From: Haloplasma contractile SSD-17B
Lineage (GTDB): Bacteria; Bacillota_I; Bacilli_A; Haloplasmatales; Haloplasmataceae
Assembly: GCF_000215935.2 (NCBI RefSeq)
Contig: NZ_AFNU02000004.1
Coordinates: forward strand, 62,001-126,000
Reading direction: 5' to 3'
DNA length: 64,000 bases
Part shown: one piece after another, positions 3,539 to 61,772 of the stretch
Layout: every line of letters starts with the position of its first letter
Numbering within the stretch: the first letter of the stretch is position 1
The notes under the pieces: model-generated
Seen by the model: only the letters and a program-made list of their open reading frames with translations
The model's database searches: none
What the model was told of the DNA's origin: nothing
Translations under genes and position numbers: made by a program

Positions 3539-3672
3539 TTATTGTTCCTCCTTTCGCCTATTTTTAAAATAGACTTGCTCCATGAAAATTACCTGATTAC
3601 ACCATTTTGCCAAAACAATGCACCCGGGTGTGTCAGCAACCTTTCACTTCACAGCCTTCTGCAGTCATAGAC
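3539..3672 (-). promoter_or_regulatory. S10 operon leader with hairpins
   Basis: Between the predicted transcription start (about 3672) and rpsJ lies a GC-richer leader of about 134 nt. It holds a hairpin at 3600-3620 (nine pairs including wobbles, three-base loop), a palindromic CACCCGGGTG at 3621-3630, and the rpsJ binding site next to the start. The S10 operon is autoregulated through its leader in E. coli. A similar role here is inference. Confidence 0.55.
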
Positions 3673-21024: not shown

Positions 21025-21567
21025 TTAAATGACAACTTCATCCACTTGATCAAACTCTAGCTCAACTGGAGTTTCACGTCCAAATAAATCAACTAAAACT
21101 GTCATTGTCGTTTTAATAGGATCAATTGATTCTATCGTACCAACCTGACCAGCGAAAGGACCTTCTTTAATTTTTACTTCGGACCCTACTTCAACATCGA
21201 TATCTAACTCGACTCTAGCCATTCCTAACTTTTTAAGGATTGGTTCGATTTCACCATCTTGTAATGGTACTGGTTTGGCTCCTCCACCACTTGATCCTAA
21301 GAACCCTGTCACTCCTGGTGTATTACGGACAACGTACCATGATTCATCCGTAACAACCATTTCTATTAATACATATCCTGGGAATACTTTTGAAGTCTTT
21401 TCTTTCTTTTTACCGTTTTTAACTTCTACTTCTTTTTCTTCCGGTACAATGACTCTATAAATTATGTCCTGCATTCCCATTGTTTCAATACGTTTTGTTA
21501 AGTTTTCTTTTACTTTATTTTCATATCCAGAGTATGTGTTCACTACATACCATAATTTGTTATCCAT
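21025..21567 (-). CDS. nusG: Transcription termination/antitermination factor NusG
   Basis: The 180-residue protein has the NGN domain (WYVVNTYSGYENKVKENL at the N terminus, VFPGYVLIEM and WYVVRNTPGVTGFLG) and the C-terminal KOW domain (GSEVKIKEGPFAGQVGTIES near residue 130). NusG binds the clamp of RNA polymerase and affects pausing, termination and coupling to ribosomes. It follows secE by 17 bases in the standard secE-nusG pair, with GGAGG before the ATG. Confidence 0.97.
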   Translation of the reverse strand: MDNKLWYVVNTYSGYENKVKENLTKRIETMGMQDIIYRVIVPEEKEVEVKNGKKKEKTSKVFPGYVLIEMVVTDESWYVVRNTPGVTGFLGSSGGGAKPVPLQDGEIEPILKKLGMARVELDIDVEVGSEVKIKEGPFAGQVGTIESIDPIKTTMTVLVDLFGRETPVELEFDQVDEVVI

Positions 21568-21584: not shown

Positions 21585-22223
21585 CTATAGTGCAATATTA
21601 TTATAGAACCAATCTTTTAATCCAGTAAGTCCTTGATCAAGCGCTAAGAACAATAGTGACATAAAGATTACAAATGTAAACACTTTAATTGAGTGTTCTT
21701 TCATTATTTTAGCTGTAGTCCACGTTACTTTTCTCATTTCTTTTAACGCCGGCTTTATAATTTGCCAGAACGCTTGAATAAAACAGAAAATAATTAAAAT
21801 TACTAAAATAATATTTATAATTAAATCTGTATGTGTTCCTAATATTTCAGGTAAAATCAGTATATTCATGTCTAATAATACTTTTACCGTCAATAATGCT
21901 ATTGCAAATACAAACCAAATTATATTATCAACACTAATTTGTGCCGCATCTTCGTTTTTAGAAAGTGAAAACTTTGTTTCTTCTGCCTTTAGAAAAATTT
22001 GATCTAATTCTTTAGAGAAAGCAAAAAACACTAGAATAACTCCTACGATTGCTGCAGCTAAAGATGCTAAAAACGTTTGGGTAGTTCCTTCTAAGAAGTC
22101 AAATGTTAATACATCGAATGAAATTAAAAATGCGATTACGATTCCCGCTAGCCCCACAATAGCAGCAAAATATTTTAAAAACATTCTTAGTCCTTTATTT
22201 TCTAATAGATTGTTTGCACTCAT
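21585..22223 (-). CDS. secE: Preprotein translocase subunit SecE with a long N-terminal membrane extension
   Basis: The last 55 residues (about 158-212) are a standard SecE: an amphipathic helix with LKEMRKVTW followed by a membrane helix. This fits its place before nusG. The start is ATG 22221-22223 behind GGAGGAATTG, giving 212 residues where most Bacillota SecE have about 60. The extra 150 residues hold four predicted membrane helices (about 15-36, 51-70, 101-120 and 132-152) with a charged cytoplasmic or external segment at 71-98. I recognise no known domain in the extension. The frame is continuous from the start codon, so it is not a chance readthrough. Confidence 0.88.
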   Translation of the reverse strand: MSANNLLENKGLRMFLKYFAAIVGLAGIVIAFLISFDVLTFDFLEGTTQTFLASLAAAIVGVILVFFAFSKELDQIFLKAEETKFSLSKNEDAAQISVDNIIWFVFAIALLTVKVLLDMNILILPEILGTHTDLIINIILVILIIFCFIQAFWQIIKPALKEMRKVTWTTAKIMKEHSIKVFTFVIFMSLLFLALDQGLTGLKDWFYNNIAL

Positions 22224-22235
22224 CACCAATTCCTC

Positions 22236-22385
22236 CTATTTTGTTTCTTTGTGTATTGTATGTTTTCCACATTTTTTACAGAACTTTTTAATTTCTAATC
22301 GTTCACGATCATTATGTGTATTCTTATTACTTGTGTAGTTACGCGATAAGCATTCTTCGCATGCTAGTATAACTTTTTTTCTCAT
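22236..22385 (-). CDS. rpmG: 50S ribosomal protein L33
   Basis: This short gene encodes 49 residues beginning [19 protein letters not shown] and ending in [14 protein letters not shown]. Both CxxC pairs of the zinc-binding form of L33 are present. It lies between sigH and secE, as in B. subtilis. The stop is 12 bases before the secE start. The binding site is weak (GGAG about 19 bases upstream). Confidence 0.95.
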
Positions 22386-22488: not shown

Positions 22489-23079
22489 TTAATTATCTAA
22501 ATGCGTGTAGAGTTTCTTTTTCACTCTACTGATTGCTGCGTACACTGCTTTTGTTTCTCGATTAATTTGTGTGGCAATTTCATTAGCAGTTAACCCTTTT
22601 AACATCCACTTGAATACTAGTCGTTCTAGACCCTCTAGATGTTTATACGTCTTTTTACAGCAATAATCAAAATGGTTCTCTGCAATAATCATCTCTTCTA
22701 CTGTATGATTTTTACTAAGTTGCTGATTAACTTTAATAAAATCTCTACCTGGTTCTTCTAAAGAAATACTGTGATTTATGATTTTATGTTTTTTTCTGTT
22801 GAAGTTTCTTATACATGTTAGTAGATGATTATCTATACATACATTAAGAAACGTAAAGAATTTCACTTTTCGATGTTTTACATATGTTTTTGCTGCTTTT
22901 AATAGTGCGATTCGTGCTTCTTGAACAAAGTCGTCTTTAAGATTTAGTGGGATCCTAAGCTTTCTTACCTTAATATGTATAATAGGCTCATACATCTTAT
23001 GTAATTCTTTATAAGCTGAATGATCGCCACTCTGGATTTTTAAAACCAGTTTTAGTGCCTCTTTTTCATCAATTTGCAT
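22489..23079 (-). CDS. sigH: RNA polymerase sigma factor, SigH-like (sigma-70 family)
   Basis: The 196-residue product has a region 2 (MYEPIIHIKVRKL, DDFVQEARIALLKAAKTY, KFFTFLNVCIDNHLLTCIR) and a region 4 helix-turn-helix (LTANEIATQINRETKAVYAAISRVKKKL), with no region 1 or full region 3. It sits where B. subtilis has sigH, between rlmB and rpmG. There SigH drives the start of sporulation. It is somewhat shorter than the B. subtilis protein (about 218). The assignment rests mostly on synteny and on the SigH-like layout of region 2. Confidence 0.8.
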   Translation of the reverse strand: MQIDEKEALKLVLKIQSGDHSAYKELHKMYEPIIHIKVRKLRIPLNLKDDFVQEARIALLKAAKTYVKHRKVKFFTFLNVCIDNHLLTCIRNFNRKKHKIINHSISLEEPGRDFIKVNQQLSKNHTVEEMIIAENHFDYCCKKTYKHLEGLERLVFKWMLKGLTANEIATQINRETKAVYAAISRVKKKLYTHLDN

Positions 23080-32249: not shown

Positions 32250-32430
32250 ATCTTTCTCATTCCCAGGAGAAAAATTGAAGTGATTTGTTAGGTAGGTCTA
32301 CTGGCTCATGGATTAACCTACTGTGACACCTTCCCGCCTTGATAAGCAGTGGTTTATTGTCAGTTCGTCCTCATTTACAGTTGCTGGGACAGCTTAGGAA
32401 TTACACCTAATTCCCTATTAAACATACGTT
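32250..32430 (-). promoter_or_regulatory. Cobalamin (AdoCbl) riboswitch
   Basis: The minus strand carries the conserved core in order: AATAGGGAATTAGGTGTAA, the L5 region TCCCAGCAAC, ACCACTGC, GGGAAGGTG and GAGCCAGTAGACCTACC. A hairpin downstream (about 32252-32275) has CTGGGA in its loop (32261-32266), perfectly complementary to TCCCAG in L5 (32384-32389). This is the L5-L13 kissing pair of this riboswitch class. It lies between the promoter and nrdJ, which encodes a B12-dependent enzyme. Confidence 0.93.
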
Positions 32431-32465
32431 CCTAATTATCGTTTCAATTAATAACCTATACTCTT

Positions 32466-32494
32466 ATTATAGATTATCATGGTTTAGAATTCAA
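32466..32494 (-). promoter_or_regulatory. Promoter of the riboswitch-nrdJ transcript
   Basis: On the minus strand TTGAAT (32489-32494) and TATAAT (32466-32471) are 17 bases apart. The start should fall about 30 bases before the riboswitch core. Confidence 0.75.
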
Positions 32495-61597: not shown

Positions 61598-61658
61598 AGA
61601 GTTATGGTAGCGCTTTTGTCTATTTTTACCAATATTATTGGCGAGCGCTCTATATTAC

Positions 61659-61772
61659 GCAGAGTAAATGAAGTGCGTTAAGTGCTGTAGGATGGGATGT
61701 TGCCTACGGACGAAAAAGGACTGATTATTGATTGATCAGATTCCTTTGCGATACTTTGTTGCGTCCGCTGCA
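61659..61772 (+). promoter_or_regulatory. Tetrahydrofolate (THF) riboswitch
   Basis: The core is present in order: GCAGAGTA, GTGCGTTAAGTG, ATGGGATGTTG, GGACGAA, GTTGCGTCCGCTGC. GCAG and CTGC close P1. The arm between GGACGAA and GTTGCG is longer than in the best-known examples, with an extra stem near 61717-61745. It lies between a promoter and folT and should lower folate uptake when THF is plentiful. Confidence 0.9.

What the first reader, a model, noticed from the sequence alone, without database searches (positions are those of the whole stretch)
21585..22223. SecE with four additional membrane helices
A normal SecE of about 55 residues is fused behind an N-terminal region of about 150 residues with four predicted helices. 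Bacillota SecE normally has a single helix, and even E. coli SecE has only three. The start has a strong binding site, so the extension is translated. It may replace or anchor another Sec component in this lineage.
Basis: partly seen in the sequence, partly recalled or inferred. Interest (0 to 1): 0.6.

Follow-up and report, generated by a model that had tools for sequence, protein, structure and literature searches.

The report
SecE with two extra membrane helices
A small essential part of the bacterial protein-export channel, usually crossing the membrane once or three times, crosses it five times in one odd bacterial family, and the added piece is well conserved, so it probably does something.

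Summary
It is the genome's only SecE, in the order rpmG-secE-nusG, with AGGAGG 8 nt before the long start. All 6 genomes of the family Haloplasmataceae that hold the locus have five hydrophobic segments; the other 2 of 8 lack secE and nusG from the assembly. This excludes a sequencing error or a start near residue 150.

Of 93 non-redundant SecE loci read, 49 have one segment, 1 two, 37 three and 6 five. Segments 3-4 plus the core match the three-segment SecE of related Bacilli (hhalign 98.9%). Only segments 1-2 are new. Segment 2 is the most conserved stretch among the relatives. Whether segments 1-2 copy 3-4 is unresolved.

SecY, SecG and YidC are present, so none of these is replaced; SecDF was not found. 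Most likely it is a working SecE with a second accessory hairpin at the edge of the channel, by analogy with E. coli; its partner is unknown. It is a new variant of a known subunit.

The parts
21585..22223 (-). secE, 212 aa, single copy in the genome
22232..22237 (-). AGGAGG ribosome-binding site, 8 nt before the ATG
22098..22172 (-). TM1 (residues 18-42), first helix of the lineage-specific hairpin
22014..22085 (-). TM2 (residues 47-70), most conserved segment among the relatives, with small residues at 57 (A/S) and 61 (G)
21978..22013 (-). short cytoplasmic helix after TM2 (residues 71-82; KELDQIF in the window, KQIDKFF in most relatives)
21858..21932 (-). TM3 (residues 98-122), first helix of the accessory hairpin shared with three-segment SecE
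21762..21827 (-). TM4 (residues 133-154), second helix of the shared accessory hairpin
21606..21755 (-). canonical SecE core: amphipathic helix plus TM5 (residues 157-206)
22236..22385 (-). rpmG (ribosomal protein L33), upstream neighbour
21025..21567 (-). nusG, downstream neighbour

Best explanation
This is a bona fide SecE subunit. Its C-terminal amphipathic helix and last transmembrane helix clamp SecY as in other bacteria (inferred from homology). TM3-4 are the accessory N-terminal hairpin also present in three-segment SecE of related Bacilli (shown by profile comparison). TM1-2 are a second hairpin specific to the family Haloplasmataceae (shown within the sample). Adding two helices keeps the N-terminus inside and leaves the core the right way round (inferred from loop charges and SecE's known orientation). 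The second hairpin probably packs beside the first at the edge of the channel, near the lateral gate by analogy with E. coli SecE TMH1-2, through its conserved TM2 face. There it would steady the channel or hold a membrane partner (inferred; partner unknown).
For: SecE models pass their curated cut-offs and the copy is unique in the genome. Gene order is rpmG-secE-nusG. Five segments in 6 of 6 family genomes that hold the locus (G005 and G007 lack nusG too). Hairpin 2 against the hairpins of 25 three-segment SecE: hhalign probability 98.9, P 1.1e-17. Among 392 phylum genomes the family profile matches over its whole length only in the five family genomes sampled; every other listed match begins at profile position 74 or later. 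Segment identities among the five relatives: TM2 0.80, TM5 0.73, TM3 0.61, TM1 0.60, TM4 0.59; extension dN 0.19-0.46 against dS 1.09-1.86 in the 10 pairs without the window. The TM1-TM2 loop is neutral or net negative and the N-tail net positive in all six. In E. coli the accessory SecE helices form a tilted hairpin that reaches SecY TMH8 and the lateral gate (passages of PMC6776908).
Against: The E. coli accessory hairpin did not align with the Bacilli or family profile, only the core did, so the placement by analogy may not carry over. The loop after TM2, expected inside, is not clearly positive (window K+R 4, D+E 7). The window protein has W-T where its relatives have W-P.
Confidence: 0.6

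Rival explanations
1. TM1-2 are a docking platform that makes up for the missing SecDF, for example by holding a lineage-specific membrane protein that helps late steps of export.
For: No SecDF match in the 98.8% complete genome while 12 of 14 control genomes ring. The extension is nearly as conserved as the rest of SecE, which fits a binding role.
Against: Lactococcus lactis is not among the control genomes with a SecDF match, and its SecE has one segment (recalled), so loss of SecDF does not need a long SecE. The extension has no large outer domain like SecDF.
Confidence: 0.12
2. TM1-2 arose by tandem duplication of the accessory hairpin and act as a second copy of it. (A statement on origin; compatible with the best explanation.)
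For: Same layout twice: hairpin followed by a short cytoplasmic helix (H53-75, H77-88 and H138-160, H162-174). Weak likeness TKxxL...LGI...AFS (hhalign P 0.019 against hairpin 2, 0.0064 against the three-segment hairpins).
Against: hhalign probabilities are only 2.4 and 5.9 %. 6, 2 and 2 of 60 block-shuffled profiles score as high. Scored by the hairpin-2 model, the six hairpin-1 sequences are equalled or beaten by 3 to 76 of 180 control hairpins, 2-3 of these being the window SecE's own.
Confidence: 0.3
3. The extension is a lineage-specific ornament with no role beyond membrane anchoring, as the two N-terminal helices of E. coli SecE are non-essential.
For: E. coli TM1-2 are called a non-essential region in the title of a paper of 2000 in the reference list shown (not read).
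Against: TM2 is more conserved than TM5 of the core among the five relatives (0.80 against 0.73), which a free anchor would not need.
Confidence: 0.15
4. Artefact: a separate gene joined by a sequencing error, or translation that really starts near residue 150.
For: Inner ATGs exist at 119, 163 and 174.
Against: The same fused frame occurs in five other genomes. No inner ATG has more than 4 of 6 matches to AGGAGG, against 6 of 6 before ATG1.
Confidence: 0.01

Closest known systems
Three-segment SecE of Bacilli relatives (e.g. Candidatus Izimaplasma, L084)
   Same: Accessory hairpin directly before the SecE core; hairpin 2 and core alignable
   Different: No TM1-2; 3 segments instead of 5
Escherichia coli SecE (127 aa, 3 TM)
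   Same: Core aligns (hhalign 58.3% with the family profile); N-terminal accessory helices
   Different: One accessory hairpin only; it did not align with the Bacilli or family hairpins
One-segment SecE, Bacillus type (solved in PDB 5eul, 7xha)
   Same: Core matches profile positions 163-216, E 2.9e-9 and 2.5e-9
   Different: Lacks all four N-terminal helices

Membership tests
SecE (PF00584 / TIGR00964) | Score over the curated cut-off | tested here: met
   33.9 bits against 22.7; 38.5 against 27.55
SecE (PF00584 / TIGR00964) | Gene directly upstream of nusG, single copy | tested here: met
SecE (PF00584 / TIGR00964) | Amphipathic helix with E-x-(K/R)-K-V-x-W(-P) followed by one TM (motif recalled) | tested here: met
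   EMRKVTW then TM5 at 177-195; P is T in the window but P in all five relatives
SecE (PF00584 / TIGR00964) | Binds and stabilises SecY | not testable with these tools
   No complex prediction or experiment; SecY is present in the genome
Three-segment SecE | Accessory hairpin homologous to that of the class | tested here: met
   hhalign probability 98.9, P 1.1e-17
Three-segment SecE | Exactly three membrane segments | tested here: not met
   Five segments
E. coli-type accessory hairpin | Hairpin homologous to E. coli TM1-2 | tested here: inconclusive
   Only the core aligned; a single E. coli sequence was used

The most novel reading that the evidence does not exclude
The second hairpin is a built-in translocon partner: a domain that in this family takes over a task that other bacteria give to a separate membrane protein (such as SecDF, not detected here), so that the Haloplasmataceae channel is a SecYEG with an enlarged SecE at its lateral gate.
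Probability: 0.12. Interest if true: 0.7.

Novelty: new variant of a known kind. Interest (0 to 1): 0.42.

Why it matters
The role of the accessory helices of SecE is an open question: passages of PMC6776908 call it largely unclear and describe the pair in some Gram-negative bacteria. A lineage that added a second hairpin, and keeps its TM2 at least as strictly as the TM of the core, is a natural case in which such helices matter enough to be conserved. The survey also shows that a three-segment SecE is common in this part of the Bacilli.

Tried and rejected
Internal duplication was tested with hhalign, with single hairpins against 180 control hairpins from 64 frames of the same genome (three of the 180 are the window SecE's own hairpins, which my filter failed to remove), and with 60 block shuffles for each of three targets. 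There is a hint but no proof, so I do not claim it.

A free-standing relative of hairpin 1: no listed match of the family profile is confined to positions 1-100 in 392 phylum genomes at E <= 0.001. Plasmids (protein mode) and viral contigs gave no match.

Other long SecE frames in the class: G315 (260 aa frame, L107) and G212 (213 aa, L113) have three segments behind a long charged N-terminal part. The second SecE match in G034 (22.3 bits) lies in an ORF next to an ABC-transporter ATPase and reads as its permease, so chance.

Structure: two AlphaFold2 jobs of low confidence. Foldseek has no match at E <= 0.001 and the VIA-align rows all have Z <= 6.3; no SecE appeared; not used.

Monophyly of the five-segment SecE on a NusG tree: the window's own NusG falls outside the other five with weak support (80/30). 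Holding the six together is not rejected (p-AU 0.199).

Literature: 'SecE' with 'Haloplasma' gave 0 papers. 'SecE' + 'five transmembrane' + 'SecY' gave 4 papers, of which I saw only the listing and abstract starts. 'Not found in print' rests in this open-licence library only. Of PMC8082313, PMC3087755, PMC6776908 and PMC5766551 I saw passages, not the whole text.

Full report
What is there. The coordinates hold a 212-codon gene on the minus strand, ATG at 22223 and stop at 21585. It lies 12 nt after rpmG and 17 nt before nusG, in the usual ribosomal-protein neighbourhood. Residues 157-206 match SecE in Pfam and NCBIfam over the curated cut-offs, and it is the only SecE match in the 3.4 Mb genome.

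Is the extension real? Yes. An exact AGGAGG sits 8 nt before the first ATG. Inner ATGs at 119, 163 and 174 have 3, 4 and 3 of 6 matches; GTG 65 has 5 of 6, but a start there would still include TM3-4. The taxonomic order of the window holds 8 genomes in one family here. Six carry the gene, all with long frames (216-246 aa) and five hydrophobic segments. The other two (G005, G007) have neither a SecE match nor a nusG match, so that piece is missing from their assemblies. Named relatives with the same proteins are Inordinaticella fortuita, a MAG of Haloplasma contractile, an uncultured Haloplasmataceae bacterium and a Bacilli MAG, so the lineage is taken to be Haloplasmataceae. The window's own genus is unnamed here.

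How unusual is it? SecE was read in 116 loci, 93 of them non-redundant, including E. coli, one Ignavibacteriales and seven Bacillaceae: 49 have one segment, 1 has two, 37 have three and 6 have five. The loci are the best-scoring ones of the searches plus 30 genomes chosen to cover the class families, so this is a spread, not a random sample; segments were counted with a simple hydropathy scan. Of the 395 class genomes searched, 364 have SecE, but frame lengths were listed only for the better matches. Of 392 phylum genomes searched with the family profile, 125 match; the family's five match over essentially the whole length, and every other listed match starts at position 74 or later.

Which helices are new? 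The hairpin TM3-4 with the start of the core aligns with the accessory hairpin of 25 three-segment SecE of the class (hhalign probability 98.9, P 1.1e-17). TM1-2 do not align significantly with hairpin 2 or the three-segment hairpins (probability 2.4 and 5.9 %, P 0.019 and 0.0064), and 6, 2 and 2 of 60 shuffles reach the observed scores. The likeness TKxxL...LGI...AFS and the repeated hairpin-plus-short-helix layout are hints of duplication, no more. So the make-up is two new helices, two shared ones and the core.

History. On a tree of NusG, a gene outside the trait, 36 three-segment rows form one group (support 99/92), with five of the six five-segment rows beside it (97/86). Seven one-segment rows of family f11 lie next, and the window's own row falls outside with weak support (80/30). 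Holding all six five-segment rows together is not rejected (p-AU 0.199). The simplest reading is that the accessory hairpin was present in the common ancestor of the three- and five-segment groups and the second was added in Haloplasmataceae; one gene of 180 residues cannot settle it.

Selection. Mean pairwise identity over all 15 pairs is 0.48 for residues 1-95, 0.54 for 96-154 and 0.59 for 155-212. Without the window, TM2 reaches 0.80 and TM5 0.73; with it both are 0.68. TM2 keeps small residues at 57 and 61 in 6 of 6 sequences, a pattern often used for helix packing (recalled). dN is below dS for the extension in all 15 pairs, though dS is near saturation in many of them.

Topology. The N-tail is net positive and the TM1-TM2 loop neutral or negative in all six, which fits N-inside. 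The loop after TM2 has mixed charge and does not decide by itself. With five segments and an inside N-terminus, the core keeps the orientation known for SecE (recalled).

Other Sec parts in this genome. SecY (PF00344, E 4.5e-103), SecG and YidC are present. SecDF gave no match, with 12 of 14 control genomes ringing. Lactococcus lactis is not among those 12, so a genome without this match is not unique. SecDF could not be tested in the relatives.

How it works, as far as can be said. The core will clamp SecY as in other bacteria (homology; PDB relatives 5eul and 7xha by sequence). In E. coli, passages of PMC6776908 report that the accessory helices form a tilted hairpin whose outer loop reaches SecY TMH8 and the lateral gate, and that their role had remained largely unclear. 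A passage of PMC8082313 says the two N-terminal TMs likely stabilise an early insertion state. By analogy TM3-4 should sit there and TM1-2 beside them or against a further membrane partner. That step is inference: no complex was modelled, the single-chain models are weak, and the E. coli hairpin did not align with these.

Verdict. A real, conserved five-segment SecE, not found described within the searches made: a new variant of a known subunit, moderately interesting because the extra part is conserved and its role testable.

Noticed in passing
whole genome G000: No SecDF (PF02355) match in a 98.8% complete genome that has SecY, SecG and YidC.
   Followed up: partly
22489-23079: SigH-like sigma factor gene upstream of rpmG; it scores well below the sigma-H model cut-offs (best 87.3 bits against 212).
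   Followed up: no
3554-3660: S10-Clostridia ribosomal leader match on the minus strand, just over its gathering score (39.2 against 35.1).
   Followed up: no
32274-32474 and 61658-61772: Cobalamin and tetrahydrofolate riboswitches.
   Followed up: no
L107, L113, L070: Three-segment SecE of class family f21 carry long charged N-terminal tails (L107: roughly 130 aa) before the hairpin, another kind of SecE extension.
   Followed up: no
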